This document shows positions 1,254-47,913 of a stretch of 64,000 nucleotides of DNA, piece by piece. Every line of letters starts with the position of its first letter. Position 1 is the first letter of the stretch. The stretch is from Bugula neritina (lineage: Eukaryota; Bryozoa; Gymnolaemata; Cheilostomatida; Bugulidae): the NCBI GenBank assembly GCA_964035545.1, contig OZ037769.1, forward strand, positions 2,821,001-2,885,000, in the 5' to 3' direction. Both the position numbers and the translations under genes were made by a program. Below the pieces are notes generated by a model. The model saw nothing but the letters and a program-made list of their open reading frames with translations, made no database searches and was not told the origin of the DNA.

Positions 1254-3422
<2,169 letters not shown>

Positions 3423-22053: not shown

Positions 22054-25013
22054 TCATTGAGGGTACCCGGCTGCAAGGAAAACTTTCTTGGGGGACTTTT
22101 TGGCTCTTTTTGAAGAAATGATGTGAATCACAGGATTTTGGGATGAATTTGGATTTTTGCTGTTGACCATATTATTCTTGCCTTTTCCTGAGGTCTTTTT
22201 CTTGTTTTTACGATTATTATTTGGTTTCTTCCTGTTTACAGTTTTTAGGTTGTTTATTGCTACATCCCCTGTCTTGGAGTTCTTTTTGTCTTTGGCATTT
22301 TTCACATCTTTTTTGACCTGCTTAACTTTTTTCTGCTTTTGAACATTTTTCTTTCTGTCCTTAGTAATTTTTTTCTTCTGCTTTTGTGCTTTATTTTTTA
22401 TATTGTTTTCATTTTGCTTCTGCTTCTTTTTGTCATTTCTGATGTTTTTTCTTTCTTGATGTTCTTTTTCTGCCTTTTTAACCTTTTTCTTAGCTTCTTT
22501 TTTCTTCTGCTCTTTCTTTTTCTTCTTTATTTTTTCATGTTTGTGCTTTTGCTGCTCTTTTTGAATAGCGTCTAATATTGATGTTTGATGCTTCTTTCCT
22601 TGATTTTTCACAATGCTTTTAGGTATGTTTTGTTTCTTAGCACTTTTTTCTAGTTTTCTCGTTATCTTTTTAGCTTTTCTGACAGCCTTTTTGTTTTTGC
22701 CATGAACTTGAAGAAGCTCCCTAAGATCACTTTTCAACTTGTTCCTTTTTTTATCAGAGATTTTCCCAGGTTCTTCCAAAATATGCAGCACGTTACCAAG
22801 TGTTTCTCTAAAAGTTGAACTTTCAACTTTGTGTTTCAATCTTTTTTTGGTTTCATTCTCTTTTATTTTGCTATGTTTTGTTTTGTGCTCCAATTTTTTC
22901 AGCTCATGTTTTATTTTATCTTTAATCTCCTCCCCTATTTTCTTTTTATGATGCTTTTTTGCTTTCCGCTTAAGCTTTTTTACTTCATGTTTGATTTTTT
23001 CTTTAGCTTCTTTTCTCCCTTCTCCTTTCTTTGGAAGGTGCTTTGCTTTGTGCTCCAACTTTTTTAGATCATGTTTTATTTTATCTTTAACCTCCTTCCC
23101 TTTTTTCTTTTCATGATGCTTTTTTGCTTTCCGCTTAAGCTTTTTTACTTCATGTTTGATTTTTTCCTTAGCTTCTTTTCTCCCTTCTCCTTTCTTTGGA
23201 AGGTGCTTTGCTTTGTGCTCCAACTTTTTTAGATCATGTTTTATTTTATCTTTAACCTCCTTACCTTTTTTCTTTTCATGATGCTTTTTTGCTTTATGTT
23301 CAAGCTTCTTTATTCTGTGCTTGATTTCATCTTTAGCCTCAGCTCTCTTCTTTCCATCTTTTGGAAGATGTTTTGTTTTTCGCTCCAACTTTTTCAGATC
23401 ATGTTTTATTTTGTCTTTAACCTCTTTCCCTTTTTTATTTTCATGATGCTTTTTTGCTTTACGCTTAAGCTTGTTCACTTCATGTTTAATTTTTTCTTTA
23501 GCTTCTTTTCTTCCTTCTCCTTTTTTTGGAAGGTGCTTTGCTTTGTGCTCCAACTTTTTCAGATCATGTTTTATTTTATTTTTAACCTCTTTCCCTTTTT
23601 TATTTTCATGATGCTTTTTTGCTTTGCGCTTAAGCTTCTTTACTTCATGTTTAATCTTTTCTTTAGCTTCTTTTCTTCCTTCTCCCTTCTTAGGAAGATG
23701 CTTTGTTTTTCGTTCCAATTTTCTGAGTTTATGTTTTATTTCTTGTTGTGCTTCTTTTTTATGTTCAGGCTTTTGATGGTCATGTTTTACTTTATGCCCT
23801 ATCTTCTTCAAATCATGCCACAAGTTCCCATTTTCTTTCCATACATTCTTAACTTCTTCTTTTACCCAATGCCTTTCTTTTTCATGTTTAAGTTTACGGA
23901 ATCTTTTCTTCAGATCATTATATCGGTGTTTGCTCTCTTCCAGACGCTGTTCCAGCAGCATTTTTTTCAATCCTTCTTGCATTGGGTTCTTTTTGTGTTC
24001 CTTCCTGTTATGCTTCTCATCACCTTTAGCTTTTCCTTTAATTTTCTTTTTTATTGACCTCTCAATCTCTTTAGCTTTTGCTTTTTCACGACCTGTGTAA
24101 AAATTAAACAGCAATAAAGTAAGATTTTAATCTATACACTATTGGTTTTTAATTCAAGTTTATAATTATTTCACTTTTAAAAAATCTTAATTTTCCTAAT
24201 GAATGTAGATGAATATCCTAAACAGACTGAGTTTCAAAATCAAAAAGGCAACATTTGAAACATGGCTATAATAGAAGTTCACAGTGATTTGGACATCATA
24301 ACCCATTAAGACTTGTTACAAGTAAACCAGCTTACCATGTTTCTCTTCTTTAGCCTTGTGATGACTAATTGGGGACTTATGCTCAGCTGAATCAAGCTTG
24401 TCCACCACTTGTCTGGTCTTGTGGATAGCATGCTTTATGCCATGCTTAGCGTTTAGTGCATTTAAAAATGGATGTTTAAGTTCTAAAACATAAAACATTT
24501 GTTCGAATATTTGTAACCTTTTATACATAAAACGGCTGTTTTAGATTCACTTTCCAAGTTCTTGCTTGAAAGTTAAAAATCTAAAAGTGCCTACTATCCA
24601 TATACAAGTAAAGGGTCAATTAAAACTTTATCACATTGATATCAGCAACTCTACATTTCTCTTGATTTTCTGTAGCCAGATCCTTTTACTCAATATTTTT
24701 ACTGCTCTAGAATATTGTTTAAAGTTGTTAGATAACTAGCAGCGTTGTGATGGTTATTATATTTACACATTTCCAGCAAATTTGAGCTTATTCTCTATAT
24801 ACTATATCTAACGCTGTATATGCCTACTAATACCATATCTTTTCAAAAAACTAGAGTTGCTTTCTATGGGTTCACCTATAACAGTTATTTTTTACATGCA
24901 GCTAAAAATATAATTGAGTTATGCTCACCTGACAAAAATTTGTTTCCCTTTACTTCGTGATAATTTACAAGACATATTGCTGCCACGTAACCCAGCAGCC
25001 CCCAAACTTTCAT
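22054..25013 (-). CDS. K1: secreted Lys-rich 55-residue-repeat protein
   Basis: Exons 25013-24929, 24482-24336 and 24092-22054 (- strand), both introns phase 1, give 756 residues. Residues 1 to about 23 are a signal peptide (core LLGYVAAICLV). Exon 2 encodes a His/Lys-rich segment. Exon 3 is overwhelmingly Lys, with Glu, His and Arg. Residues about 200-480 are a tandem repeat of exactly 55 residues (165 bp), itself two 27-28-residue halves, with motifs such as KIKHDLKKLEHKAKHLPKKG and KIKHEVKKLKRKAKKHH. The heptad-like spacing suggests long charged helices. Further on, PGKISDKKRNKL resembles PEKLSEKKKDKL near the end of K4. There are no Cys in the repeat region. I recognise no family. A strongly cationic extracellular structural or binding role is inferred. 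It is the only member of the K group on the - strand. Confidence 0.85.
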
Positions 25014-26095
25014 GTTTGCAAATGACTGGAACTTGATAATAATATTTTGACGCTACTACCTGTATGCTGAATACTGCTTGTCCCTGCGGCATTCAAAGCT
25101 TGCACGAAGCCAAGCTAACTTTACTTGTTGTTTCTCATTCGTAGTTTATACAAAGCTTATAGCTGCATGGTACACATTTCTAGTGGACGCATCACAGCTA
25201 ACTATTTTAGCAAAACATCATAGCAGCATTTTTTCTGAAAAATTAACAGTTTTCATGCTAGAATTATTTGGAAAGTAGATGCGCAGATATATTATTGGTA
25301 GAAAGTAGCACAGATTACTATAGCTATTGTTTCATAATTTATCTGTATACAGGTAACAATACTACAATAACAATACTATATAAATAGACTTGAAAAATAA
25401 AATTTATATCTTAAACAAATTCATTATAAAGTTTAAGACTTCAATTCAATGGCTCTCATTATATTATATAGTCAACAATCTCTGCAAACAGTAACACTGG
25501 GCTAAATACTATATAAGGAAGATGGAATAAAATATCAGCAGAAATAAAATTGTCTATATAATAAAGTATGTCTCTATTTTAGTAATAGAGCTTCCATTGA
25601 TTTTAGGTAACATCTTTTTATGTTTCAATTTTACAGCTTTTTACATGTTGCATCGCTATACGTTCTATACGTTGCTTTTAGAAACTTCCATTTTCATTGT
25701 GTCATAATTAAAGGAGTAACTAGCTGTTAACTTGTCTACTGCTTTTGTACCGTGACTCTGAAATATTGGAAGTTGTCATACCTCTGGCCAATCTGTTTCC
25801 AACATCTATTAGAAGTTGCTCTATCTTGTGATTACTTTGTATATGAATTTAGCAACAGTAGCCAGTATATATTTTTAAGAAGAGATTATTGCTATGCTGC
25901 ACAGTAGGAATAGAGGTAATAAACTAACACCATATTCATAGACAGTGACTGAAATCAGACTTGAATTGGATGTTAATATTGAGATTAGCTGCTCTATAAT
26001 AGTTTGCAGTGTATCTGGGTATAATGTTGACTGAATATTGACTGAACTAAAATAATTACAATTATAAAGCTCTATTTTCACACGCACACACGCAC

Positions 26096-26174
<79 letters not shown>

Positions 26175-26181
26175 CACACAT

Positions 26182-26226
<45 letters not shown>

Positions 26227-26907
26227 CACACATACACGCACACATACAACACACACATGCGCACACAGGTGCTACATTTAATGGCATTTGGTCTATTTAT
26301 GTTTCAAACATTTGATTTGAAAGTATGTTTGTTTTATACACAATTATTTAACAAACCGTAATGCAGTCTGATCTTTTTGTTACGCAATATTACGTGCCAA
26401 TTAAACAGCATGTAATATAAACTATTTAATTTAATGCAGCAAGACAATACTTTTATTAGATAATTATAAGTTTAAGGTAAGGCCAATATTCTTCAACAAT
26501 TTACTTTTTTAAATGTATCTATGAAAAGTTATTAGAGTTTTTATTGATTAAATAGATTTATTTTAATGTATTGGAACTCTCTATATTGATTTGTTGAAAC
26601 TATTGAGATGTATTGCAGTAAACAGAACAACATATGTTTGTCACCTATCAGCACCAACAGCTTTTCTGTGAAAGATGAACAGGAGTGGATTGATCATCCT
26701 TTACTCTGGTAGGTTTTTAATAATTAATAGTAATATGTAATGATAATTATAATATTTGTTGCTGGCTTAAGCATTGTGTATCTTTTTTAAAAAGTCAGGC
26801 TGGTAAACTGTCTTAAAGTATTTATTCTTTCGACTTTATAGCATATAATATGTAATATTATAGTTTAAACCCCTCTTCGTTTTGTTTCTAAATAGATCAT
26901 TAATGTG
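25014..26907. other. Intergenic, K1 to K2, with CA repeat
   Basis: Divergent interval between K1 and K2, so it should hold both promoters. It contains a (CA)n microsatellite at about 26080-26260 with CACACGCA and CATACACG variants. No exon is seen. Confidence 0.65.
26080..26262. repeat. (CA)n microsatellite
   Basis: About 180 bp of CA dinucleotides interrupted by CG and TA variants; the Cys/Val-rich ORFs here are artefacts of it. Confidence 0.95.
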
Positions 26908-26925
26908 TATATAAAATTGACGTCA
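26908..26925 (+). promoter_or_regulatory. Candidate K2 core promoter: TATA box with CRE palindrome
   Basis: TATATAAAA at 26908-26916 is followed by a perfect TGACGTCA at 26918-26925, about 110 bp before the K2 ATG. Spacing suits a start site near 26940. Whether the CRE-like site is used is unknown. Confidence 0.5.
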
Positions 26926-27034
26926 CTAGTTGTGTTCTTGGGGAGAGGACAGTTGTGTTAGTGTGATGCTAATTGTAGGCCTATATAGCTTGCACTCAGC
27001 TTGCCCAAACCATTTGCATCTGGATGGTAGAGAA

Positions 27035-28402
27035 ATGAAGCCGATAGACTACCGGTGTTTAGTTCTGTTGCTTTCAGTTCTCAGCACTGCAAACGCTTGG
27101 TTCGGCAGAGAGGCTGCCGTTGAACCTGATTATGAATTAGTAGGACAACATAATTTTGGTGAAAACCAGAATTTTGAAGGTAATCCTGCGGCTGAATATG
27201 GCCAGCAAGGTATGTTCAATAATGAGCGGTATGAACAACCTCCTATGAACTATGAAGGTCAAAGACCCAGCAGTTATGGAGGCTCAATGGGAGAAAGGTT
27301 TCAGAACGGTATGCAGGCGATGCGTGGTTTTGCTTCGCAATATGGTGAGAGTCGAATGCCTGGCATGAGCAACATTCTGAACGCAGCCGTGGCGGCTCGT
27401 GATGGTAACAAAGAAGAGTTTCGGAAACAGCTTCTCACAGCTGGTATGAAAAAAGCTGGAAAGATAGCTTCACAGAATGGTGCTGCCTCAGCAGCTCAAC
27501 AGAGAAATGCAAACGAGCAGCAACCAAGCAGTGGTCATAGTGTCTTGCACAGCATACTCGGTGCTACTGCAGCTGCCCATAAAGGCGATAAAGAGGCCTT
27601 TCATAACCATTTATTAAATGTTGGCATACATAAAATAGCATCTAAAGTGGGAGGCAAGCATGGCGAAGTGGTGAAACAAGCTCTTTCCCTGGCCGCCGGC
27701 CACGGTAATGCGAAGGAGTTGAAGAAGCATTTACTGACTGAAGGACTGAAAGGTGTTACGGGGGTTCTTGCCAAACATGGAGGTAAAAAAGGACAGGCTG
27801 TTGCACAGGCTATCACAGGAGCTGCGGCAAGTGGAGGTGGTTTTAAGGCTATTCAAAAGTCTTTAATAAATACAGGCATAAAAGGAGCCACACAAGCAGG
27901 TGTAGATGCTGCCACTGGGCTTGTAACCGAGTTTGCTGGCCCGGCAGCAGGTATGATTGCTAACAAGCTCTTGGGGAAAGCTGGAGGTGCTTTGGACAAA
28001 GTTGTTGGCAAATATGCCGTCAAAGGAGCTGAAAAGCTAGAAAAAGTTGGCGTAAAAGAAGCTAAAAAGCTTGGCAAAGGTGCTGTAAAAGAAGCTAAAA
28101 AGCTTGGCAAAGGTGCTGTGAAAGAAGTTAAAAAAGTTGGCTCAGAAGCTAAAAAGATAGGAAAAGGTGCCGTGAAAGAAGCTAAAAAGATTGGACACAG
28201 CGTAGCTAATGCTGCTAAATCAGTGGGAAATAAAGTCAAACACTTCTTTCATGGCTGGGGTGAGCTACTAAAATCTACAAGAACTTGTAGATTTCTATTT
28301 AATTGTATAAAATAATAATTATTCCCTGCAAAACTATTCTGATAATATATTTTAATATGTTTGTTTGTTTTAGGAAAGAAAAGAAGGAGAAGAAGAAGAT
28401 AA
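27035..28402 (+). CDS. K2: secreted cationic repeat protein with GKK-Arg terminus
   Basis: Exons 27035-28259 and 28374-28402 (phase 1) give 417 residues. The start at 27035 is chosen because it begins a clean signal peptide (MKPIDYRCLVLLLSVLSTANA); the frame is open 35 codons upstream without one. A Gln/Asn/Gly/Tyr-rich linker is followed from about residue 111 by four tandem modules of about 43 residues, patterned A..AA..GN...K.LL..G.K, for example KELKKHLLTEGLKGVTGVLAKHGG. Then come TGLVTEFAGPAAG (about 292) and 11-13-residue repeats of GKGAVKEAKKLGKG. The last exon adds only GKKRRRRRR after HFFHGW. Gly before a dibasic run resembles an amidation/convertase signal. TGLVTEF and DKVV.KY.VKGA recur in K4. 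Function unknown; an amphipathic membrane-active or matrix protein is inferred. Confidence 0.82.
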
Positions 28403-28532
28403 AGTTCTCACTATTCCACATCTAGTTGATTTTCCTCGATGAAATGCCATTTGGTTGCAATTTTAACTCTTACTTTCATTTATCCCAGCATTTCAATATC
28501 AAAATGTAACAATATTGTCACAGTTCTTTTTT

Positions 28533-28538
28533 AATAAA
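28533..28538 (+). terminator. K2 polyadenylation signal AATAAA
   Basis: A canonical hexamer lies about 130 bp after the K2 stop codon. Confidence 0.65.
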
Positions 28539-28832
28539 GCTTTTATACTACAAACTACAACGGAATAATTTACTTGAAACAATTTATTTCTATAATAAAA
28601 CATATGCTGAGTATCATGATAATTTCAATTTAAACTTGTGGAGTAGCACAATAGATGGTCCTACATTGGGTTACACAGCTGCATTGAATTCAAGTTAACA
28701 GTTGGCAAGTTGATAATTAGCACCTTCTGCTTTTTGTATGCGGTACCTAAACTTCTAAATGTTAGGCTTAGGTCAACCAGAGCTTAGTTTCAGTTCCTTG
28801 TGACAAAGAAATAATTCTGCGGGACAAGAATC

Positions 28833-28985
28833 TTTCTATAAGCAACTTTGAGTTAGGTGACTGAGTGCTGTAGTTTGGGGTTCTTGAGTTTGGAGGCTTT
28901 TGTTGAAACTTTAAACTCGACCAACTCCAACTGGGAGACCCCAAACTACTACACTTAGTGACCCCCAACTCAGGGCTGCTGATAG
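28833..28985. mobile_element. Foldback (inverted-repeat) element
   Basis: Arms of about 65 bp (28833-28897 and, inverted, 28917-28985) share TAGTTTGGGGT, GAGTT.GG and TCTAT.AGCA. A third, partly matching copy at about 29036-29106 starts GTCTATAAGCAGCCCCAAG. This is consistent with a short non-autonomous inverted-repeat element or its nested remains. No coding capacity. Confidence 0.6.
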
Positions 28986-30149
28986 ATGATTGCACAAAAC
29001 AAGACTCCTAGCTTTACTTACTGTATCAAAGAACTAGTCTATAAGCAGCCCCAAGTTGGGGGTGAAAGACAAATTTAAAGTTTGGGGGTCTCAAGTTTGA
29101 AGTTTGCCTAAAAAGCCACTATATGTATGAAGTCATTTTCAGTCATTTAAAAACAGTTAACAATGGAAGGACAACTCCGTAGTATTATATATTCAATAAA
29201 AGTATAATTTTATATGCAGTTAATAATTTTAAATCATTAGAAAGAGCATTTGCAGGGTTGTGTTATGCTTGCACTCATCACATGCTTAATATATAAACTT
29301 ATCATCTCGAATTAATAAAAAATATGTCAAAAAGATACAAAGAATGTGGAATGCTGATTTATAGTAATAACAAAAGTATTATTTAAATCTTTACATGCTA
29401 AGAGCTTTTTTTTACACAAAGCTATCTACAGTGTGTAAAATCTAGTAAAGTTATAAGCAATTATACATTTTTTTTCAAAAGAATACATTGCTACTATTAA
29501 TAGTTTCCTGTGCTTTTAGCAGTTCTCAGTAAAAAATTGGGCTATGCAAAAATCTGAAGTTTAGTTATTCGGCACTATTGCTTACTATAATAGGTGCATA
29601 TTTTGCTAGCCAGAGAATTCCTATGTGCCACTTTTCATCTAATTGGCTCTCTATTTCACAGTCAAAAGACCATCTTTTCCTAATATCAAGTCTGCCTATA
29701 GGGAAGCTACTGTAATCTACAAACACCATAACTCAATAATTCTCACCTATTCTCACCTTATATCTCCTCTTTGTCTTGTTCAGTATGAGGGGGGGAGGGG
29801 GGGCCCATAACTCAATATTGTTGTTGTTATATATTATTATGTATTGTTGGATTATTTATAACAGAGTTGCTGCAATGCATTTTTATTAAACTGTGTAAAA
29901 TATTATTATATAGCTAAAATGTGTCATTAGATTATGATTATGATCATTATTGTTATACTATAATAGCTCGTTGTTAGATTCTATATAATACTGTTGTTGC
30001 AATATATTATTTTTAAATTATGAATGATATTATTGCTATATGATGAAAATGTAGGTTTTATCTCACATGCGATATGTTCTCTTTCAAATCTTAGCACTTT
30101 TGTCTTTAGAAATATTATCACAGCTTAATCTAGTTCATACCTGTTTATT

Positions 30150-30475
30150 ATAATATATAATACAACATAACATAATATAATATAATGTAGCATAACATAA
30201 CATAACATAATATAATGTAGCATAGTATGATATAACATAACAAAATTTAATAAAACACAATAATATAATATAACATAACACAATATAATATAACATAACA
30301 TAATATAATATATAACATAACACAATATAATATAACATAACATAATATAATATAATATATAACATAATATAATATAATATAATGCATTGTAACATAGCAG
30401 GCTAAAAAGTAATATAATGTAATATAAATTACACAATATAATATTATAACATAATATTATACATATATATTTTCA
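30150..30475. repeat. ATAAC/ATAATATA low-complexity tract
   Basis: Imperfect five- and ten-base repeats (ATAACATAAC, ATAATATAAT) over about 330 bp. The Tyr/Cys/Ile-rich ORFs on the other strand are artefacts. Confidence 0.9.
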
Positions 30476-31074: not shown

Positions 31075-31080
31075 TATAAA
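31075..31080 (+). promoter_or_regulatory. K3 TATA box
   Basis: TATAAA lies 44-49 bp before the K3 start codon, with an inverted CCAAT (ATTGG) about 45 bp further upstream at about 31032. This compact arrangement implies a very short 5' UTR and supports the K3 start. Confidence 0.65.
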
Positions 31081-31123
31081 CTCTGCATCTTAGTTGTGAC
31101 TTTGCAGTGAGTATAAACTCACC

Positions 31124-32269
31124 ATGAAACTTGTATTAATAGGAATTCTGGTAGTGGCAGCTGGAATAGCAAACTCTCGAAGAATTCATAATGGTAAAAT
31201 ACTTATCATTCTTACAAAAAAGATTGAGTTTTACATTTCTCGAGTCAAGAACAAGTGATAGTTAATAGATAAATATAGAATGTCATATACAATCGAAAAG
31301 CTTAACAATTGTTTTTATAGCTCATCAGTCTTTAAGTCTTAAAAGACAAATTAAAAATTGTATTGTATATAGTTGGGATCTAAAACAATTAGTTTTCATT
31401 TTTCAAAATTTATTTTAGATGTCGAGTCATATAACATAAGAGCCCGGCGTGGGTTCTCTATGTCGCTAGACCAGTTAAAGTCATTTCTAAATGGACAAAG
31501 TGGAAGCACCAATGCCAACTCTAACACCAACACCAACACCAATGCAAATCAGCAAAGCTCCAGTTCGACAAAGAACCTGAAAAACAACTTGAAAAATACT
31601 GCTAGAAATTCGGTAACAAACTTGGCAACTGATTATGGCGGTCCAGTTGGTGGCGCGTTGGCGACGAGCCTGACAAGCAAAGGCACCATGAAAAAAGTTG
31701 GTAATATGTTCAAAGGACTGGGAAAAAGCAGTAAGTAAATTTCTTTTCTAATAACCAAATTTACGTTTCTAAAAATGGCTGTTGTATGTTAAATAATTAT
31801 AAATAGTTACTTGTGACTGTGCAGTGTCTTCTTACATTGTAGCGATTCAATGACTCAATGATGGTTCAGGCTTACTTGCACATATATGCATTGTTTTGGA
31901 GATGTATGAATTTATTTGCACGCTTTTATAGAAAAGAAGAAAAAGGAAAAGAAAAAGAAGAAAAAGGCTAAAGAAGCCCAGCAAGCTCAAAACAGTAACA
32001 ATGGTTGTACTTGCAATGGAAATAATGGGAGTAATGGCAGCAATGGAAATAATGGGAATAATGGCAATGGAAATAATGGGAATAATGGAAATAATGGGAA
32101 TAATGGCAATGGAAATAATGGGAGTAATGGTAGCAATGGAAATAATGGAAATAGTAAAAATAACAATAATCGCAATGGTGGCAATGGTAACAATGGGAAA
32201 TCAGGAAACAGCAATGGAAAGCATAAAAATAAGCATAAGAAACAAAATCGTAACAACAATAACAAATAA
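31124..32269 (+). CDS. K3: secreted cationic protein with Asn-Gly-rich tail
   Basis: Exons 31124-31193, 31419-31730 and 31932-32269, both introns phase 1, give 239 residues. Exon 1 is a signal peptide (MKLVLIGILVVAAGIANS). Soon after comes RARR followed by GFSMSLDQL, a likely furin-type site that would release a short propeptide (about residues 19-33). A Ser/Thr/Asn-rich stretch follows, then residues about 74-127 with NLATDYGGPVGGALATSL, resembling the K2 and K4 module. The last exon starts with a run of Lys/Glu, then CTC, then dozens of Asn-Gly repeats (GNNGNNGNG), and ends in Lys/Asn. The only Cys pair is in NGCTCNG. I recognise no family. AATAAA at 32302-32307. Confidence 0.8.
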
Positions 32270-32301
32270 TAGAGCTTTTGTCTATGACTTTTTTATTTTG
32301 A

Positions 32302-32307
32302 AATAAA
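32302..32307 (+). terminator. K3 polyadenylation signal AATAAA
   Basis: Lies about 33 bp after the K3 stop, giving a very short 3' UTR. Confidence 0.6.
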
Positions 32308-32309
32308 GT

Positions 32310-35158: not shown

Positions 35159-38100
35159 ATGGGGTGGAAAATATTTCAGCGACTTCTTTTAACAAATCTT
35201 ATTCTACTGCTAGTGACTTACACTGCAAAAGGCTTGGCACTAGAAGCATCAGGTTTGATAATATTGTTTCTTTTGTTTAAATAAAATTTTATCTTATAGT
35301 TAATCAGAAAAGTTTAAATATGTATATAGTGTTCACAAGATTGAGAATACGAATTTCTCATGTGTTTACAATGTTTAGACTTTATAACAATAATGTAGGT
35401 TTTGTAGTTTTTACTATCATGGCAGTGTGAGTTTAAGAATAATACAGTTTAGAGTCATGAAACTCTATCAAAAGCAGACTAATAAGTAATATTTTTAAAT
35501 CTCTATAATGTATTGAAAATCAGAATTTGCTAGGCTGGTAGCAAGTTTGTAGAGCTTCTATAAAAATTTTCGAATAATTAAAACATGTGTTGCATTTTTA
35601 GATGCAACAGAAGATGTATTGGAAAAACGTGATAAAATTATGGATGAGGCAAAGAAAGCAATTTCTTCAGCTGTAGAGTCAAGTAATGGAGATCCAGTGA
35701 AGTTGAAAAAAGCGCTTGTGAAAGCAGGTGTGGATGGTGCAACAAAGTCTGGAATAAAGACTGCTACTGGTCTTGTTTCTGAATTTGTTGGGTCAAAGTT
35801 TGGAAAAATGGTAGAAGATATTATGAGCAAGGCAGAGAAAGATGTTGACAAGGTGGTTGACAAGTACACTGTGAAAGGAGCTATAAAAGTCAAGCATGCA
35901 GTAAGGAAGGTCTCTCCTCATAAAGAGAAAGGAGATAAGAAGGAATCTAAAAAGAAAATCTCAAAAAAGAAACCTAAATCCAGTGACGGTCATAGCTTAA
36001 AAAGCCATATTCAACAACGAGTTGGTAGTCTGCATGGTAAGTTAGAGAATCAAATTGACTGCAAAATTTCAAAGTATGTGATTTGAGTCTCTAGTGAAGT
36101 AGTGTGGTAATTTAGCGATATAAGTTGTTCGGTGTAGTATTCAATGCCTAAATAGCCTATAACCAACTGCAATTTTAGCACAACATTTTAGGAGGCAAAG
36201 ATAAAAAGCTCCCTGTAAAGAAGCATCATCTAAAGAAAGCTCACCCAAAAAAAGCTCATTCAAAGAAACCTCATTCAAAGAAAGACCACCCAAAGAATGC
36301 TCATCCAAAGAAAGACCACTCAAAGAAACCTCATTCAAAGAAAGATCACTCAAAGAAGGTTAAATCCAAAAAAGCTCACTTAAGGAAAACGCAACCGAAA
36401 AAAGCTTTGTTAAAAGCATCTCACCCTAAAACTGCAATTTCTCACAATCCTAAGAAATCTAATAAAAAAGAGAACCATCTTAAAAAGAAACAACCACTTA
36501 AACACCATTTAATAAAAACTGACCATATAAAACATGGAATACATCCTCCTAAAAACCCTAAGTCTGGTAAAAAGGAAAAGAACAATTTAAAAAAGCCATC
36601 AGCACCAAAGCAACAGACAAAGAAGCAAAAAGCAAAAAAGCAAAATATAAAAAAGATCAATGGTAAAAAGCAGAAGATAGAAGCAACTAAAGCTAAGAAG
36701 CAACAGAGCAGTAAAACTCACCCTAATAAGTTGAAGCAACACAAAGCCGAAAAGCATAAACTAAAAGATGCTTTACACAAAATTGAAAAACCGAAGAAAG
36801 GAAAGGTATCTAAAAAAGTGAAGCAAAAGGTAAACGATAAAAAGAAGTTGTCTGCTGCAAAGCATAAGACTGTGAAGATAGCTAATTCAAAAGCAAAAAA
36901 GTTAAAAGCTAAATCAACAAAAGTAAAAACTCCAAAACCATTGCCTCATTGCAAGCCAAAGGGTAAAAAGCCTTGCCTATTACAATCAGCCAAGAAGTCA
37001 GCAAAGCCTGCATCCAATTCAACTAAAAAAGCTCAAATTCATAAGCCCAAAGCTCCTCCAAAAGGTAAAAAGAAAAAGCCAAAAGTTGACTCAAAAAAAT
37101 CTAAAAACAAATCAGCAACCACTAAACATAAGGTGAAAATTTCCAAAAAGAAAGACCTTAAAAAGAAAACAAAGCCATTGAAGCCGTCAAAACCATCAAA
37201 ACCATCAAAACCATCAAAACCATCAAAACCATCAAAGCCATCCAAACCATCAAAGACATCAAAGACACCAAAACCATTAAAGAAATCAAAGACACCAAAA
37301 CCATTAAAGAAATCAAAGTCGCCAAAGAAATCAAAGCCATTAAAACCATCAAAAACACCAAAGCCATCAAAGACACCAAAACCATTAAAAGCTAAAAAAG
37401 TTAAGCTTCCTACACATAAAAGTCCTCTAAAGAAAAAGGCAAAGAAAAAAGAAAACTTGAAGAAAGCAAATTCTAAAGAACATAAAATCAAACTAGCTGT
37501 AACTAAAAGCAAAGCTAAGATTCACAAGAAAAAAGATCATAAAAATTTACAAGGAAAAAATTCTAAACCTTCTAAGCCTAAGGGCCCAGCAAAAAGCAAA
37601 GATAAGAAAAAAGGAAAGTCAAAGAAGAAGTCTAAACACTCTAAAGTCAAGCCAGCAGCTAATAAAAACACAGTAAAAAAGCCTAAAATTGCACCTGAAA
37701 AGCATGCAGCCCAAAACTCAGATAATAAAAGAGAAAAACGGAAATTAAAAGACATTTTGGGAAAAGTAAAGCTAAAGTTGGAAGTTAGTAAAATAAAAGT
37801 TGACCCAAAGCTTAGCCATAAGCCAGAGTTTTTGAAAGAGGTAGTTCATACTAGTCAGTCAAATAAAAAACCGGCATTAATGGTTGCCATTACAAAGCTC
37901 TTCAACAAAAAGAAACTTCGTGCATCTATGGCACACAAACTAAAGGGAGCAATAAGAAAAGCTCACATGAAGAATGCGATTAAAAATCTTAAATTAAAAC
38001 ATAAGGCTGCGAAAGGCACAAAGAAATTGACTAAGGCTTCTAGTGCTCACCACAGCACAAAGCATGTTTTGCCGAAACCTGCTCCTACTCACCAGAAAGC

Positions 38101-38755
38101 TTCACTCCAACATAAAGCAGAAAAGGTATTGAAGAAAAAACTAAAGAAGCATGATGCTAATAAGAAGGTAGTTCACACAAAAGAAGAGCACAAAGGTAAA
38201 CCAATTGTCAAAAGTCCCACAAACAAAACGAAACATGAAGCTAAGAGTCATAGCAAAGCAACTACAAAGATTACATCCGTAAAAAATGACAAGAAAAAGA
38301 AGAAAGGGAAAGAAGTGAAAGAGCAAGAAAAGTCACATGACTCAAAAAAATCGACACATAAAACTCATGCTGCAGATTCCTCAAAAAAAGCAAAAGAAAA
38401 AGATCAGCTGAAGAAAAAGCTGAAGAAAGTAGAAAAACAGCTCAAGAGGCCTTTAGAAAAAACTTTGGTCAAAGCTGGAGTAAAAGAATTAAAAGCACCT
38501 GAAAAACTCTCAGAAAAAAAGAAAGATAAACTGGAGAAGAAACTATCAACTCTAAAGAAATCACACGAGGAAACACAGAAAAAAGCTCTGAAAAAGGTTC
38601 AAGAGCTGAAGAAACAACTGAAAGATGCAATTAACAGTCCTACAATAACCATTGACAAAGTAAAGAGTCTTTTGAAAGAGATTGTTGCAGAGATCAAAGT
38701 AAAAAAAGCAAAGGCTGTTGGAAAAATAAAAAAGCTGCTTGATAATAAAGATTAA
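35159..38755 (+). CDS. K4: very large secreted Lys-rich protein
   Basis: Exons 35159-35252, 35602-36036 and 36192-38755, both introns phase 1, give 1030 residues. Exon 1 is a signal peptide (core LLLTNLILLLVTYTAKG). Exon 2 (to residue 176) contains KKALVKAGVDGATKSG then TATGLVSEFVG and DKVVDKYTVKGA, which by eye matches the last module of K2 in the same order. Exon 3 is about 850 residues dominated by Lys: it opens with SKKPHSKKDH-type repeats, has a KPSKPSKPSK/TPKPLKKSK tract at about 506-577, then a less repetitive part with predicted helices, and ends with KLKKVEKQLK, PEKLSEKKKDKL and a helical DKVKSLLKEIVAEI. Cys are rare. Function unknown. It looks like an extreme polycation with a small globular or helical N-terminal module. 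Confidence 0.85.
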
Positions 38756-39536
38756 CTCTGTCGTTAGTATATCCCGGCTTGAACCAAAAACCTTTTGGTC
38801 AGAATGCCTGTTATATTTAATAATGATAAGTTTTAGGAAATAGATTTATTTCCTTGAAACCTTTGTTAAACTGTTACAATATGTGCTTCTGCGCTGTACC
38901 AACTTTTTATGAGTTGTACAACATATGGATTACCAAATATTCACAAAAGTATTATAATAAATATAATATCATAATTTATGCAGCAAGCATTTTATTATAT
39001 ATGAAATAAATTAGAAGCAAATAAAATTAATGTAAACATTTATTATGTGGATGTTAATGCAATTTTTATTGGATCTACTATGTTTTTATAGACATTGGAA
39101 AAAAATAAGACACTAAAAGTGGTATTTTATCAATAAAATATATTAGCTTCACAATATTCTGTGCAGTTTTAAAATTCCAATAATATATTATTAGTAACAG
39201 ATGCTTGGGCATTCAACATAAAAAATATACATGCATTTCACACATTTCAGCAAGCAATAGTCTGTTGATGATTTAAAGTATAAAGCATTAATTAGTATAG
39301 CAGTAGTGGAGAAATTGAGAAAGTCTAAGTTCTTTAATTTTATTATTAAATTTTGGTTTGAGGCGTGGGTTGAAATTATCATAAGAACATATAATTTTTT
39401 CTGCTACATTTCTAATCTAGAACACAGGCTTAATTTCTCTATTTCTCCATTACTGCACCTACCACGTATAAAGTGCATATATGTACACACGATACGCAAG
39501 CACAGAATAAGATAACCTAACCAGTTCCTCCCCCCT

Positions 39537-39855
<319 letters not shown>

Positions 39856-42151
39856 TCTTATGTACTATTGATGATTCAGCTTTATTGTTCGTTCTGGCTC
39901 CTAATATACCACTATATGCAGATCTAGGATCTACTTTTTCTTGTTATAGCTGTAGCTTGAACATTTAAATCATCAATCCATATCTAATATTTGTGGTAGA
40001 GTTCTCTGGTCTCTGATAAAATTATATTAAAACTTTGAGATAGCTCTTGATTTTGACATAGCATGTAACTTGAGAAATATTCAATTAGTGGTTTAAAAGA
40101 CAATTATAGCTACAGTGCTATTGCGCCATAGGCCCTGTCATTTTGTTTATTTTTTTCTCAATTAATTTTTTCCCTACTATGACAAAATAAAAACAAACAA
40201 ACAAACAAACTGTATAGACTTTGTGTCAAGTCATAGCAAGTACATTTGTTACTAGACAACAATTCACCCAACTGATTCTATTTAGTAATTCCTGCAAAGT
40301 TTACACACACTGCCATGCTACATTTAGATAGCAGACAACTCCAGAGAAAGTAAAATCGTTTCGCATATCCTCTAATTATAGTTATTATTGGTGGTCTCAG
40401 AATTTTTCTGTCTGTTTATGAGGATGGATCAGACTTCAGTCATCATTGCAAAACCATGTCAAGATTGTATGCAGAGCTGAATGTATTTATATAAGCTATT
40501 TGGAAGTTTTCCACTGTATAAGTACTTATATCGTCATCTGCATATACCACATTTCACTTCAAATCTACTTCATTCAAGCTTTTGTATTACAGTGTAGGTA
40601 TTTGCTTCAGAGCTAGCAATATAATTCATATGACATAAAAAACATATAAAAAGCGCAATGAAAATCTAAGATTTGTTCAACAGGTTTGTTGGCATTAGAC
40701 CTAATTTTTCAGCACATCATATTTAGGGCATATGCTTATAGCAAGCTTTGTTATATGCTATAACAGCATTTTACACCATTTTATACATTCAATGAGCTGC
40801 CGCATCATGTTTGTTGCAAGTTTTGATAACTTACAAGTTATTAAGATAGACGAGTTTATATAAAAGTGAAGGCTTAAGTACCACGGAACACAAACTAGTT
40901 GAAACTTTCAACTATTCATACAAAAGGCTAATTTTTATAACTTTAGTTTGCAGTCATAGCAACCTGTTATATCTTAAAGGCAAAGCTTTACTGTGCATAC
41001 ACTTTAGAATAAGCTATTACACATAAGTTCTGATTGCAACAACAAAGCTGTTTTTACGCTGTGTGATGCAGGTTCCATTTTAATATTTATTGTTAAGCAT
41101 GTACGAATATTTCATTGTAAATTCCCAAATTCTATTAGCATGTTTCAACAGTGTACGGCATTTCTCTTTGACAAGTTTCAATTAAATTGCATTCTACTTC
41201 CTGAAGCATACCAGCTGTTCCATTTTTCTGCTAGTTTTACTAAAGCCAAGCCGAGGTAAAAATTTCTGGAAACACAAGCTGCTGTCAAGCAGCGTCATGC
41301 CTCTACAGTTAGAACTAGATGCAACAAACCATAAATTAGCCGCGTTTGTGTTTGGACCAGCCGCTTTGCCAAGCTAAGTGTATTGTAAAAGTTTCACATC
41401 GCGTAGTGGTTTGGGCATAATAAAGTATTTATAGATGTCTAATATATACCTAGTTATAAATTTACACAATCACAAAACCATAGCTCATAGTTTGTAGTAT
41501 AATATCTGTTACATTGGTGTCACTATAGGTAAATACTTTTTACTTTAATGCACTTGTTGAAAATGTTTTGCGTTAGAATTGGTAACATTTGTTTCCAAAT
41601 GCGGTTCCATAAATAATTTCACTTCTATGGTCAAATATGCAAAAAATTAGGTGGAAAAATAATGGAAGATGTTAATTTAAAAAGTTAATTTAGAATATTT
41701 AAAGTTTTAGGGTCTATATGCCACGCACGCAAATGACAACCATGCAGCCTAATTATAGTATGTCATAAACTCAGTCTAATGTAGCTATTGGGACATATAC
41801 TCTAAGTAACATCTCATTTATATGCTATTTGAACTATAGTAAACATATTATAAAAGGCTTTTTATTGCATTTTAAATAATTACCCCACAGTTTCTTATAA
41901 TTACAAAGCTTGTAGTTTGCAAAACCGTGCAAGGTGTATAAATGTGCCAACTACCTTTCTTGTAAATAGATTGAAACAAAATTGTGACATATAGCCTATT
42001 CTATATCAGTTTATAGCTAATGCGTGGGCTCTATCACCCACCCTCTACCCAGATAAATTTTCAACATTTGAAAAAGGCAAACACTTGCAGAATGATTTTT
42101 ACATTTTGAAATATTTGAACACTGTTAAAGCAAACTATAATATTCCCCATG

Positions 42152-42360
42152 CAGAGTTGGGGTCAATTACATATGAATGTAATTAATTACAATTATAATT
42201 ACATGAAAATTTGTCAATTTCAATTACAATTATAGTTACAGTTAAAATATATGTAATTAATTACAACTACAATTACATTTTATATACCAAATACAAGTTA
42301 CACTCAATTAATTGAAAAAATTTAATGAATTACAACCAATTACAATTACCCAAACCCTAA
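42152..42360. mobile_element. TAATTG-rich inverted-repeat element, copy 1
   Basis: It begins CAGAGTTGGGGTCAATTACA and is made of alternating TTACAATTA-type units, ending in ATTACCCAAACCC, an imperfect inverse of its start. The start matches the inverted right end of the copy at 61128-61533. A terminus beginning CAGAG is reminiscent of hAT-type MITEs, but no clear 8-bp target duplication was found. Confidence 0.55.
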
Positions 42361-42524
42361 ATTATCTTCTATAAATAATATATGCGCAATAGCTAGGAGA
42401 GAGGCAAGCGTGTAAAATTACCATCAGCTATACCCCCACAATTGTAGCGCATCTATAGGCTAGAAAGAGTTGTTATGTATTTTAATCATCAGGATCGCAG
42501 CTAATACTTGGAAGTGGTCGACCA

Positions 42525-44201
42525 ATGGAGGCCAGGGTAGCAGCTTTGCTTGCTGTTGTATTACTCATCACTTCTGCAGGTAAATTTTATTTTAGCTTAT
42601 GTGCAACTTGCATGCATATGTTTATTATTTAGATTTTATGATATGGTCATTGTTTACTGTATAGCTACATGGCATATACCAAGCAATGTCCATATGCTAT
42701 ATTATACATACATGAACCATAAACTCATTGATAATTTTTACAAATTATGTAACTGTTATGTTTTTTGCAAATTTTTTTAGTGTTGCATTCCGTATGCATC
42801 TTTATTTTGTATCAACACTACATTACAATATATATTTCAGTTACAAGTACTTCAGTTTCTAAGCTAATTAGTTCGTGCACAATGTTCATTTAAGTCACCA
42901 TTGTTTCGTGATGCTATATATTTCAAGCTCATTACAAGAGCATTCTGTATACCAATATTATTTTTTTCTATTTAAAACAAATCATATCATTACAAATAGC
43001 CATCAACTGCAAATTTCTTGGTATTTTTAATTATGTGTTGAATTGAAAATCAAATTCGAATTATTCATAGAATGAACATTGATTGTTAGACAAGCATAGA
43101 AAGAACCTGATCCTAAATTTAATTACAGTCCAAAAAGTATCATTAAATATAGAAAAGGAAAACATCCTATAAAAACTAGGTGGTAAAAAATCTTCAAACT
43201 ATAAAGAAAAGTTAAAACACCTAACAAATGTCATTTCACATTATCAGAGATGTTGCATTGATGTTATAGTGTATTATGTGTGAAAATTGTTCAAGTCAAT
43301 TTTCGAAATAAGAGTACAATACACATTTACAGCTATATACCTTTAATTTTCTCCTTGTAATATAATTGTTTTTTAAATTGATTGCTTTGATAGGCAGCAC
43401 AGAAAATAATGGCAGATTTGAAAATAAGCAGAATAGAAATAAAGAAGCTGGTAAGAAGCCACTAAAAGAGCTGATAAAAGACACGAAAGAGAAGTTGTCT
43501 TCTACTGGGCAAGGAAACGCTATAGACAAACAAAACAAGCTTCTGCAGCAAATCTTAGACCAGGCAAAAAAGCTGAACTCAAACACCGCAAACAGTAAGG
43601 TATATGTAAAACACCAAGCAGATACTGGAGCTCCATTGCTATCCATTGCTTTGTCACCTGGAAGTGGTAGAAATATACATATATCACCAAATGTCAGGCA
43701 GCATAGTAGAGGCCCAAAACATCATCAACCATCTCAACTGCCCTCTGATGAAAGTAGAAGTGTACACCCCTCACTTCCAGATCAGCATGGTGGATCCAAA
43801 GCTAACTCCAGTACAACATTTCATAAGTTAAAGGAAGCTCTAAAACACATCAACAAAACGAAACTAGCCAAAGGGGCAAAGAAAGCAATATCAGCGGGTA
43901 TATCTGCCTCTTTGGCAATGTATACTGGAGGATTGGGTAACATAGCCTATGAAATGTTGAAAGACCCGATGTCAAAGCTGGCCGACAAAGGTGCTAAGAT
44001 AGTTGCTTCTAAGGCAAAGAAAGGATGGCATTTGTTGAAAGACAAAGGAGCTAAGGCCAAGAATTTTATGAGAAAGCATTTTGGTTAGTATATTGACATT
44101 GTGGATATTGTCTTATTGATGCATTTATATTCATATTATTATAATAATACAAAACACTGAATATTATTATTTTAGGAAAGAAAAAGTCGAAGTCCAACTG
44201 A
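42525..44201 (+). CDS. K5: secreted cationic protein with GKKK terminus
   Basis: Exons 42525-42579, 43394-44083 and 44176-44201, both introns phase 1, give 256 residues. Exon 1 is a signal peptide (MEARVAALLAVVLLITSA). The central exon starts with a Lys/Asn/Gln-rich segment including QNKLLQQILDQAKKL, then a His/Pro/Ser-rich linker, and from about residue 164 an amphipathic region with KKAISAGISASLAMYTGGLG, DKGAKIVASKAKKGWHLL and KNFMRKHF. The last exon adds only GKKKSKSN. This micro-exon matches that of K2 in position, phase and opening bases (G|GAAAGAAAA). The Gly-Lys-Lys after an aromatic/basic helix could be a processing and amidation site. Family not recognised; a membrane-active or matrix-binding secreted protein is a guess. 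Confidence 0.82.
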
Positions 44202-46331
44202 AACCGTTGTCAGATCCAGTTCCAGACTTCAAGATACACATTGTTACCCAATGTCCAATCGTACGTGTGGACAATAGTATAATAATATAATGAATAATTT
44301 TATTGTTGAAAATAAAATATTATATATCATAACCATCTCTTGAAACATATAATACGATGTACTTTTTATGCAAATGATAGTTCTGTATGAAATTTAAAGC
44401 TGGCTGTAACAATTAAAATTTATTTGAAAATTGTTTAAAAGTGAAAAGAATAAAACACAAGGTTTATTTTTCAAAATACCATTTCCCAAACATTGGACTG
44501 TTTGCACATGTACTTATGCTGAAGCGATACAATTGCATAGTCAACAGAGGGAATTAGCTTTAACAGCCAGCTACAGTCAGCTGTTGGTCTCCATGGATAC
44601 CTAATATACATAATTATTATGAAACTATGTAATAAGAAATGATAATAATATAACAATGACACACATTCTTTTTCAAAAGTTTCTAGGATTTGAATTAGAT
44701 AAATGCATCTGTTTTTTTATTATGTTTCACATTTTGTATTGCTGAGATAAAGACAGATTGTAGCTTTTTGCAAAAAGATCGAAACTGGAATAAATGTTAT
44801 TTTTTTTAATAAAAATCTTGGTTTTCATAGACGTTTCTTATATAAGCAAATGCTTTATGCCCTTTAGCCATTTATTTAAAAGCAATTTAATAAATGACAT
44901 TAAGATCTCATGCACCCTAATATATTATATAATATGAGAAATAGAAATACAAAAATTTTACTGAAACAAATTTTGCAGATTACAAAAATGCAAATTTTAT
45001 AGAAAATATAATATGCTATTTGCTACACAAGTAATGTCCTGAATCTCATTTTGCCATGATTCAAACAACATTTCAACTTTTACCAGCTGCATTCAATAAT
45101 CTTGCAAATTATTTTAGTTCAGATCTGCAAGGTTAAATGGAACAAGTCACTGGAAAAATCATGCAATTATTGCAATCATAATTATGTCATTATAGTTACA
45201 ATGCTATTGTAAATCTTTGATGATAAAATATTAGGCTGGGGAAAGACAACTCTGCGTTGCGATAAAGTATGATAGAAATCTACCAACATTGACAACTATT
45301 TGTATGCTTTCAAGTCTGCGATGTCATGGGTATGTACATGTAGGTATCACTTTTAGCCCAACGTGATTTTAGTTGTTTTGTTATTCATGCTTTACAAAAG
45401 AACAATTTAAAACTGCAAACATTTCAAAAGAAGAAAATGATTTTATTAAAGTTGCATAAACAGCAAGAATCTAGGAAATAACTTATACACTTCAACTTTA
45501 TTATTTTACCAGTATATATTATATGTAGAGTTTAGCATTTATTTTTGTATGAGTACAAATGCAAGTATAGCAAAAATTGTTTATAATCTTACAAAAATCC
45601 AAGCTATTCTTAAGCAACACAACTAAGTCAACACCATCTTATATAGTGTGATTTAAAACTTTGTTTAATAGGTGAGAATTTAACATAAACTTTGTTTTAA
45701 AACAATTGTCCTGGCTAATTAAGCACCAATAAAAACATATATAACTGGAAATACAGAGTTATATATAATAAATGAAATGTATGTTAACATAAATCTGTGC
45801 TGTTTTTCGTTCATTAATCTTCAAACGCATTAACTTTTTTTTTTTAAAAACTTCGAAATATTTCTGATAAAAGCTGTAAATTATTAGCATATATGGCTGT
45901 CATTTGAATTTCTTTATGATATTGTTGGATGAGACGGCACTTTTCAGTTATGTCTACTCTATCAGCATTGTAGCACCTTTAGTAATGTGCATACACTACT
46001 GGACATATATATGTTGAAATTGACATTAACCATTTCACAAACATCGATCTATTGTGGCATCATTGTATATAACGCAATCAATTCTAGTAAAGTTTTGGTA
46101 GAAAAACAATGTTTACTGAATTATATTTAAATATAATAAATAGAATGCTACTGGCAAGCAACTCAACTGCATTTCATATGAAATTTGCAAACGTGGCAAA
46201 AATGCCATCATTGTTTAGCAAAGCAGCATCGCTGTATCTAGCCAAGCACCATTATTTAGAGCTTCACAGGTGCTGTATATCAAGTTATATTACAGTCTAA
46301 AGTTTCATTTCCAATCATTACTTCAGACACA
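44202..46331. other. Intergenic, K5 to K6
   Basis: AT-rich. An AATAAA soon after K5 (about 44310) could end that transcript. No exon, RNA gene or tandem array of note is seen. Confidence 0.6.
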
Positions 46332-47913
46332 ATGGACTCAAACAAGTTGGTGTTTAGTGTAGTAGTGTTTGCCTGTATTTGTGCAACTCTTCATGCAGCT
46401 GCTATTGGACAATCAGGCAAGTTCTAAGTTCTTTCCTTTGTGGTTCTCATGACACAAGACATTTCAAATAGAAGTTTCTTTTTTTTAAATAGATACACAT
46501 TTTACTTAAGTCTATTGTAAAAATATCTTTTGAAAACTCTCAAGGTGACTCAGTTAATCCAAAATTTAAAATGTTATTTTAGTTCAGAAAAGATCTCTAT
46601 TTGAGAACTATTGGAATGACTATAATAAAAGAAGTCTTGAGGATGACATCCGAATAAATAACCTAGAAGAGAGAAGTTTTGAAGACAACAGCTATGCAAA
46701 TGCAGAAAGTCTAGAAGAAAGAAGTTTCGAAGATGATTATAATAATGAAGATGATTTAGAAGAGAGAAGCTTTGAAGATGATTATGATTATGAAGATGAT
46801 TTAGAAGAGAGAAGTTTTGAAGATGGTTATGAAGATGAGGATGATTTGGAAGAAAGAAGCTTTGAAGATGATTATGATTATGAAGATGATTTAGAAGAGA
46901 GAAGTTTTGAAGATGATTATGAAGATGAGAATGATTTGGAGGAAAGAAGCTTTGAAGATGATTATGAAGATGATTTAGAAGAGAGAAGTTTTGAAGATGA
47001 TTATGATTATGAAGACGATTTAGAAGAAAGAAGTTTTGAAGATGATTATGATTATGAAGATGATTTAGAAGAGAGAAGCTTTGAAGATGATTATGAAGAT
47101 GGAGATGATTTGGATGAGAGAAGCTTTGAAGATGATTATGAAGATGAGAATGATTTGGAGGAAAGAAGCTTTGAAGATGATTATGAAGATGATTTAGAAG
47201 AGAGAAGTTTTGAAGATGATTATGATTATGAAGACGATTTAGAAGAAAGAAGTTTTGAAGATGATTATGATTATGAAGATGATTTAGAAGAGAGAAGCTT
47301 TGAAGATGATTATGAAGATGGAGATGATTTGGAAGAGAGAAGTTTTGAAGATGATTATGATTATGAAGATGACTTAGAAGAGAGAAGTTTTGAAGATGAT
47401 TATGATTATGAAGATGATTTGGAAGAAAGAAGCTTTGAAGATGATTATGATTATGAAGATGATTTAGAAGAAAGAAGCTTTGAAGATAATTATGATTATG
47501 ATATGCAACAAAGAAGCTTTGAAGACAGCTTTGAAACTGAAAATAGTTTAGAAAGAAAAAGTTTTGAAGACACAGATTTTGCAAATGAACAAAACCTAGA
47601 AGTTCGCAGTCTTGAAAGCAAAGGTAGATTATTTAAAATACTGAAATTGTTTTGTGTTGGGATGACAACTTGAAATCAAATTGCTTTTGAGCTTTATTTT
47701 TTTTGAGAAGAATCTAAACTTCACTGTATAAAACCTTTGCCCCACACCCCCCCCCCCCCCGGGATTCGAACCCGAGACTTCCGGCTTGCAAGCTATAGCC
47801 ATAAAGCCACAAGGACAACTGGGTGAACTCAACACTACACACTGGAATCAAATTCAATCAGTGTATCAATTTTTTTAGATGAATCAGCATATATTGAAAG
47901 CCTATGGAAATGA
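46332..47913 (+). CDS. K6: secreted acidic repeat protein (RSFED repeats)
   Basis: Exons 46332-46416, 46583-47623 and 47879-47913, both introns phase 1, give 386 residues. The first intron has a GC donor (CAG|GCAAGT). Exon 1 is a signal peptide (core LVFSVVVFACICATLHA). Exon 2 encodes about 21 copies of a 13-15-residue unit of the type DLEERSFEDDYDYED, preceded by KRSLFEN and KRSLED variants. The repeat is almost entirely Asp, Glu and Tyr with one Arg, Ser and Phe per unit. A 219-bp (73-residue) block is itself duplicated. Each unit has Ser-Phe-Glu, which fits the Ser-x-Glu preference of the secretory kinase Fam20C. The last exon adds DESAYIESLWK. It is oppositely charged to its neighbours K1-K5, and no family is recognised. 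Confidence 0.85.
47730..47826 (-). mobile_element. tRNA-derived SINE in last K6 intron
   Basis: On the - strand it reads GTCCTTGTGGC, GCTTGCAAGCC and the B-box GGGTTCGAATCCCGG, then a poly-G tract and GGGGCAAAGGTTTTATA. The same B-box and GGCAAA.GTTTTATA follow in the copy at 50215-50306, so the 3' body is shared. The D arm is poor, which argues against a working tRNA gene. Confidence 0.75.

What the first reader, a model, noticed from the sequence alone, without database searches (positions are those of the whole stretch)
22054..47913. Cluster of six secreted, charge-extreme genes sharing a phase-1 exon plan
K1 to K6 are consecutive. In five of six, exon 1 is just a signal peptide and ends in phase 1 (K2 has no intron there). 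In all six the last exon is entered in phase 1. K1-K5 are strongly cationic and K6 strongly anionic. I recognise no described family. Shared architecture, shared motifs and adjacency suggest one expanded locus building an extracellular material or peptide set.
Basis: partly seen in the sequence, partly recalled or inferred. Interest (0 to 1): 0.9.

Follow-up and report, generated by a model that had tools for sequence, protein, structure and literature searches.

The report
Bryozoan cluster of charged secreted proteins
Six neighbouring genes in the fouling bryozoan Bugula neritina predict secreted, highly charged proteins that match no described protein family we could test; three, probably four, of them share an ancestor, and they are candidates for a glue, coat or defence secretion, with no expression data yet.

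Summary
In detail: all six spliced models read cleanly and all 11 introns are phase 1. The shared exon plan is weak evidence of kinship: phase-1 introns near the signal-peptide cleavage site are usual in animals (PMC1626468), and another duplicated signal-exon candidate in this window has the same donor phase. Sequence supports one family for K2 and K4 (blastp 9.9e-12, reverse 7.9e-8) and K5 (profile 15.2 bits, 0 of 1000 shuffles); K3 is probable (5 of 1000). K1 and K6 are not linked by sequence. The pieces searched found no copy elsewhere in the genome; no Pfam family passed its cut-off for the pieces scanned. Repeats in K1 and K6 are under purifying selection as protein. Best explanation: secreted polycations (K1-K5, +537 together) beside an acidic repeat protein (K6, -150, 26 S-x-E sites) forming a charge-complexed extracellular material. 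Antimicrobial peptides, or mere neighbourhood of K1 and K6, are the main rivals. Expression and structure are untested.

The parts
22054..25013 (-). K1, 756 aa, net +176: exons 24929-25013 (signal peptide), 24336-24482, 22054-24092 (polybasic, 678 whole residues)
   Evidence: clean frame, phases 1,1
22876..23700 (-). K1: five 55-aa repeats (165 bp), each of two 27-28-aa half-units with Gly/Pro/His-containing joints
   Evidence: pooled pairwise pN/pS 0.21; neutral simulations 0 of 300 at each of four kappa values; helical moment p 0.0025 and 0.0005
27035..28402 (+). K2, 417 aa, net +35: exons 27035-28259 and 28374-28402 (tail KKRRRRRR)
   Evidence: JGI-sourced relative P0001, 323/349 identical
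27365..27922 (+). K2: four diverged repeats of 39-43 aa (borders set by me)
   Evidence: self-alignment offsets 60, 100, 43, 44 score 56, 53, 53, 49 against a maximum of 44 in 100 shuffles
27794..28069 (+). K2: core shared with K4 and K5 (probably K3)
   Evidence: K2-K4 43% over 56 aa, E 9.9e-12, z 16.7
28005..28189 (+). K2: cationic 11-residue repeats (KKLGKGAVKEA type)
   Evidence: 33-bp tandem array 28005-28141; best helical angle 98 degrees, moment 1.55
31124..32269 (+). K3, 239 aa, net +32: exons 31124-31193 (signal peptide), 31419-31730, 31932-32269 (Lys run then Asn/Gly repeats)
31607..31687 (+). K3: probable short piece of the core
   Evidence: profile 6.8 bits, 5 of 1000 shuffles as high; pairwise, a different K2 stretch aligns best (0 of 500), so the register is unsure
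35159..38755 (+). K4, 1030 aa, net +264: exons 35159-35252 (signal peptide), 35602-36036 (core), 36192-38755 (853-residue Lys-rich tail)
   Evidence: JGI-sourced relative P0002 of the core, 92/94 identical
35646..35927 (+). K4: core shared with K2 and K5
42525..44201 (+). K5, 256 aa, net +30: exons 42525-42579 (signal peptide), 43394-44083, 44176-44201 (tail KKKSKSN)
43840..44055 (+). K5: core
   Evidence: core profile 15.2 bits, 0 of 1000 shuffles, shuffle maximum 8.7; pairwise support weaker (K2-K5 8 of 500, K4-K5 31 of 500)
46332..47913 (+). K6, 386 aa, net -150: exons 46332-46416 (signal peptide, GC donor), 46583-47623, 47879-47913
46712..47501 (+). K6: tandem SFEDDYDYEDDLEER units (22 segments over the exon, 16 of them 15 aa)
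   Evidence: pooled pairwise pN/pS 0.17 for the 16; neutral simulations 0 of 300 at each of four kappa values; 26 S-x-E and 26 acidic-Tyr sites in the whole protein

Best explanation
The locus encodes a set of secreted structural polyelectrolytes. K2, K4, K5 and probably K3 are diverged paralogues: signal peptide, a Gly/Ala-rich core, then a basic tail whose last exon grew very differently (7 residues in K5, 8 in K2, 111 in K3, 853 in K4). K1 is a further polycation of short amphipathic half-units, recruited or diverged beyond recognition. K6 is the polyanion, perhaps made more anionic in the Golgi by phosphorylation of its S-x-E sites and by Tyr sulfation. Mechanism (inferred): polycations and polyanion condense by charge in secretory granules or on release and set as a sticky or protective layer; amphipathic stretches bind anionic surfaces. 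Likely sites in this animal are the larval internal sac (attachment secretion, pellicle) or the colony cuticle. Shown: gene models, charges, kinship of K2/K4/K5, protein-level selection on the K1 and K6 repeats, FAM20-family matches in the genome. Inferred: secretion, helical structure, modification, co-expression, complexation, tissue.
For: Six adjacent models with hydrophobic N-termini and high charge, five positive and one negative. K6 has 26 S-x-E sites, the motif that PMC12621633 gives for FAM20C, and five FAM20-family matches occur in this genome. Sabellariid worm cement has basic and His-rich basic proteins with a phosphoserine-rich acidic protein, FAM20C being the proposed kinase (PMC12621633, passages). 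B. neritina larvae attach with the internal sac and its secretions and cover themselves with a pellicle (PMC3133996, passages). Repeats are held as protein. Long repetitive tails fit a structural role better than a small peptide (inference).
Against: No expression, proteomic or localisation data. K6 is not related by sequence to K1-K5 and may simply be a neighbour. Charges do not balance (+537 against -150 per one copy each). Tyr is scarce in K1, K3, K4 and K5 (2-4 each; K2 has 8), so DOPA curing as in Pc-1/Pc-2 is unlikely. No clear shared upstream motif. Two core stretches tested for amphipathicity were not (K2 repeat 3 p 0.14, K4 core p 0.37). FAM20 kinases act on many secreted proteins, so their presence is weak support. 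No structure could be predicted.
Confidence: 0.42

Rival explanations
1. Defence peptides: K2, K5, K3 and K1 are precursors or long forms of cationic amphipathic antimicrobial proteins that bind bacterial membranes, guarding larva or colony or controlling symbionts. K2 and K5 could be cut at G-K-K and amidated.
For: High helical moments in K1 units, K2 11-residue repeats and the K5 C-terminus (K5 repeated with the exact letters, p 0.0015). G-K-K at residue 409 of K2 and 249 of K5. The K2 profile gives dermcidin as best PDB hit at its 11-residue region, not significant (E 0.13).
Against: K1 and K4 are very long (756 and 1030 aa), K6 is acidic, and no described antimicrobial family passes its cut-off (Pfam; NCBIfam, where a bacteriocin-like model touches K5 at E 0.043, 13.8 bits against a cut-off of 40). 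K3 has no G-K/R-K/R site.
Confidence: 0.25
2. Mineral or cuticle matrix: K6 is an Asp/Glu-rich calcium-binding protein of the calcified zooid wall and K1-K5 organise anionic polysaccharide.
For: K6 acidity and S-x-E sites. Gymnolaemate bryozoans make CaCO3 skeletons (PMC11358562, start of abstract in the search listing only).
Against: K1-K5 are the bulk and are basic; nothing seen ties the locus to mineral.
Confidence: 0.15
3. Not one system: a small duplicated family (K2-K5) happens to lie between two unrelated secreted genes, K1 and K6; the shared exon plan is the general pattern of secreted genes. (This overlaps with the other readings; the confidences are not exclusive.)
For: K1 (92-aa piece) and K6 fail the core-profile test. 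Phase 1 near signal-peptide cleavage is general (PMC1626468). Other signal-exon candidates in the window share the donor phase without matching the K proteins. K1 is on the other strand.
Against: Adjacency of six charge-rich secreted genes between UBA2/MMACHC and a sulfotransferase; K1 and K4 share a long Lys-rich last exon. K1 reached 3 of 1000 on the repeat profile and 3 of 500 against K4, both on short or Lys-rich stretches.
Confidence: 0.35
4. K6 is a peptide-hormone-like precursor releasing repeated acidic peptides.
For: KR precedes its first two SL segments, and R-S joins most repeats.
Against: Later repeats mostly end in E-E-R, not a dibasic site; only 2 KR/RR sites and no G-K/R-K/R site in the protein. 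Not compared with the 11 B. neritina neuropeptide precursors of PMC4990251 (part 2 of 6 seen), whose sequences are in a figure.
Confidence: 0.06

Closest known systems
Sabellariid tubeworm cement (Phragmatopoma Pc-1 to Pc-5, Sabellaria Sa proteins)
   Same: secreted basic and His-rich basic proteins with an acidic, phosphorylated partner (PMC12621633, passages); K1 is 7.8% and K4 5.5% His
   Different: K1, K3, K4 and K5 hold 2-4 Tyr each; K6 is Asp/Glu-rich, not poly-Ser (longest Ser run 1); the six lie in one cluster; homology not tested, no cement sequence was compared
Drosophila salivary glue genes (Sgs)
   Same: secreted genes, some clustered, with a phase-1 intron at the signal peptide and a repeat-bearing later exon (PMC10835880, passages)
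   Different: no IRXC[L/V]C or PCXXXXK motif in 6 of 6; the Sgs intron lies inside the signal peptide at residue 10, here after 18-31 residues
Dermcidin DCD-1
   Same: weak match to the K2 11-residue region
   Different: E 0.13, not significant; K2 is a 417-aa protein
Perilipin family
   Same: weak match of the K4 core
   Different: E 0.009, 15.5 bits against a cut-off of 33; perilipins are intracellular lipid-droplet proteins (recalled)

Membership tests
Sabellariid-type cement | secreted strongly basic proteins plus a polyacidic partner | tested here: met
   charges and N-termini; secretion predicted only
Sabellariid-type cement | Ser-rich, polyphosphorylated acidic protein | tested here: not met
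   K6 is 8.8% Ser with longest Ser run 1; it is Asp/Glu-rich; phosphorylation itself not testable
Sabellariid-type cement | Tyr (for DOPA) in basic proteins | tested here: not met
   Y counts K1 4, K2 8, K3 2, K4 2, K5 3
Sabellariid-type cement | made in cement or adhesive gland cells | not testable with these tools
   no expression data
Drosophila Sgs glue families | IRXC[L/V]C motif, or PCXXXXK for the second family | tested here: not met
   0 of 6 proteins
Cationic antimicrobial peptides | cationic amphipathic helix (by helical moment) | tested here: met
   4 of 6 stretches tested: two K1 units, K2 11-residue repeats, K5 C-terminus; not K2 repeat 3 or the K4 core
Cationic antimicrobial peptides | match to a described family | tested here: not met
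   none over cut-off in Pfam or NCBIfam (K2, K4 core, K5 only)
Cationic antimicrobial peptides | membrane or growth-inhibiting activity | not testable with these tools
   needs bench assay
One K family | shared core by sequence | tested here: inconclusive
   met for K2, K4, K5; probable for K3; not met for K1 (92-aa piece) and K6

The most novel reading that the evidence does not exclude
One chromosomal locus encodes a complete charge-complexed bryozoan adhesive: a new polycation family (K2-K5) with a new core, a helical-string polycation (K1) and its Golgi-phosphorylated, Tyr-sulfated polyanion (K6), stored for the larva's attachment within seconds.
Probability: 0.15. Interest if true: 0.85.

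Novelty: new variant of a known kind. Interest (0 to 1): 0.52.

Why it matters
Bugula neritina is a successful fouling animal (PMC11480708). The search listings I saw (5-15 papers shown per search of open-licence papers) showed no title or abstract on a sequenced bryozoan adhesive or pellicle protein; that is not proof that none exists. If the locus proves to be the attachment or cuticle secretion, it supplies named genes for an open question, an independent case of charge-complexed animal material, and possible antifouling targets. If not, it is still a clear case of a secreted family whose last exon ranges from 7 to 853 residues of basic sequence.

Tried and rejected
Rejected: (a) the exon plan as strong proof of kinship: it is general for secreted genes, while the neighbour MMACHC has three phase-0 introns (its last exon was set one base short there). 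(b) Paralogues elsewhere: none for the K2 core (which finds K4), K2 repeats, K3 exon 2 and K5 exon 2 at E up to 10, nor for a K1 repeat piece and the first 96 aa of K6 exon 2 at 0.01. Two K5 hits at E 4.1 and 7.85 were taken as chance. The K4 tail, the rest of K1 and the last exons were not searched. (c) A shared upstream motif: 14 AT-rich 8-mers in 4 of 6 upstream stretches (mean 4.5, 95% limit 13), and blastn matches of 13-26 bases between some pairs (best E 0.002); not pursued. (d) The repeat profile as a link: K3 330, K5 46, K1 3 of 1000 shuffles as high; the K1 match is 17 residues and not taken as proof. (e) Solved-structure relatives: none significant for K2 and K5.

Could not be done: structure prediction (alignment A2; the single protein) was answered 'machine busy' 19 times, so no fold search was run. 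Mistakes: wrong exon ends, corrected; a bad HMMER option, corrected; one mistyped letter in the K5 stretch, repeated correctly (p 0.0015); one piece of the left-hand gene read in a wrong frame.
Full report
Where it is. Contig C1 of the window's assembly is 35,640,107 bases, C9 is 10,879,868 and C5 is 17,720,077. The first two equal the longest scaffold and the N90 scaffold of the Bugula neritina assembly tzBugNeri2.1, and C5 matches chromosome 5 at 17.72 Mb (PMC11480708, parts 1 and 2 of 4 read). The held assembly has 295 contigs and 215.85 Mb against 320 scaffolds and 216.01 Mb in the paper. The window is C5:2821001-2885000, so the cluster is at chromosome 5:2,843,054-2,868,913.

Observation. 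All six models have clean frames and all 11 introns are phase 1. The neighbour MMACHC has three phase-0 introns. An AATAAA or ATTAAA lies within 400 bases after each of the six stops, which in AT-rich DNA is weak support. K1 is divergent from K2-K6.

Are they genes? The five K1 repeats of 55 aa differ mostly at silent sites (pooled pairwise pN/pS 0.21), as do the sixteen 15-aa K6 units (0.17); the other 6 of 22 K6 segments were left out because of their length. Against the consensus, neutral simulation with transition bias 1, 2, 4 and 8 reached the observed silent fraction in 0 of 300 runs at each value, for both genes. Close relatives of K2 (P0001, 323 of 349 identical) and of the K4 core (P0002, 92 of 94) come from one JGI contig each, probably of a sibling in the B. 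neritina complex (inferred). The end of P0001 resembles the unspliced reading past the K2 donor, so it appears to be genomic DNA.

Kinship. K2 and K4: blastp 9.9e-12 one way and 7.9e-8 the other, z 16.7. A profile of the K2/P0001/K4 core gives K5 15.2 bits (0 of 1000 shuffles, maximum 8.7), K3 6.8 bits (5 of 1000), a 92-aa piece of K1 2.1 bits (136 of 1000) and K6 no match. Pairwise, 13 pairs were tested: K2-K4 and K2-K3 had 0 of 500 shuffles as high, K4-K1 3 (a Lys-rich stretch), K2-K5 8, and the other nine 31 or more. So K2, K4 and K5 are one family, K3 is probable, K1 and K6 unproven. Searches of the own genome with the pieces named in Tried and rejected found no further copies; only the best candidates are scored by that tool.

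Anatomy. K2 carries four diverged repeats of 39-43 aa and 11-residue cationic repeats with best helical angle 98 degrees. K1 holds ten 27-28-aa half-units with high helical moment in the two tested. K2 repeat 3 and the K4 core showed none (p 0.14 and 0.37). The last exon codes 678 (K1), 8 (K2), 111 (K3), 853 (K4), 7 (K5) and 10 (K6) whole residues. K6 has 26 S-x-E and 26 acidic-Tyr sites by my rule; that such a context favours Tyr sulfation is recalled. FAM20-family matches occur on C5, C1 and C3 (5 matches).

How ordinary is the exon plan? Phase-1 introns are in excess around signal-peptide cleavage sites in animals (PMC1626468, abstract and passages). In this window the same scan also finds two near-identical signal-exon candidates at 1254 and 6332 with a phase-1 donor, whose pieces do not match the K proteins, and a hit at 60862 that lies in a transporter-like gene by my reading. 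Drosophila glue genes share a phase-1 intron in the signal peptide (PMC10835880, passages). The plan therefore adds little beyond saying that these are secreted proteins.

Function. The best reading is a charge-complexed secreted material, by analogy with sabellariid cement (PMC12621633, passages) and given the internal-sac attachment and pellicle of B. neritina larvae (PMC3133996, passages). Against it: few Tyr in four of the five basic proteins and no poly-Ser in K6, unbalanced charge, no expression data, no structure. In a B. neritina metamorphosis proteome paper (PMC2890537, term search of the main text only) the word beginnings adhes, secret and lysine do not occur. The antimicrobial reading is kept as a main rival because of the amphipathic cationic stretches and G-K-K ends. 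I also give real weight to K1 and K6 being mere neighbours. The confidences given overlap and are not exclusive.

Noticed in passing
window 1254-1347 and 6332-6425 (+), within about 1-10450: A tandem duplication of about 5 kb seems to hold a secreted-looking gene twice (near-identical signal exons, phase-1 donor) and a second copy of what may be a UBA2 C-terminal exon (4735-4890 and 10295-10450, minus strand). Joined pieces of the secreted gene match no Pfam family over cut-off, and pieces do not match the K proteins.
   Followed up: partly
window 50624-52269 (-): Galactose-3-O-sulfotransferase family exons (PF06990, 43.0 and 27.6 bits against a cut-off of 27) bound the cluster on the right.
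   Followed up: partly
window about 55226-63925 (+): Multi-exon transporter-like gene (PF00083, E 1.8e-15 on hand-joined pieces).
   Followed up: no
K6 intron 1, window 46417-46582: GC-AG intron with GCAAGT donor, the only non-GT donor of the 11.
   Followed up: no
window 18815-20543 (+) and 17857-18141 (-): MMACHC (PF16690, E 1e-33) and a ThiF-type exon consistent with UBA2, head to head, bound the cluster on the left.
   Followed up: partly
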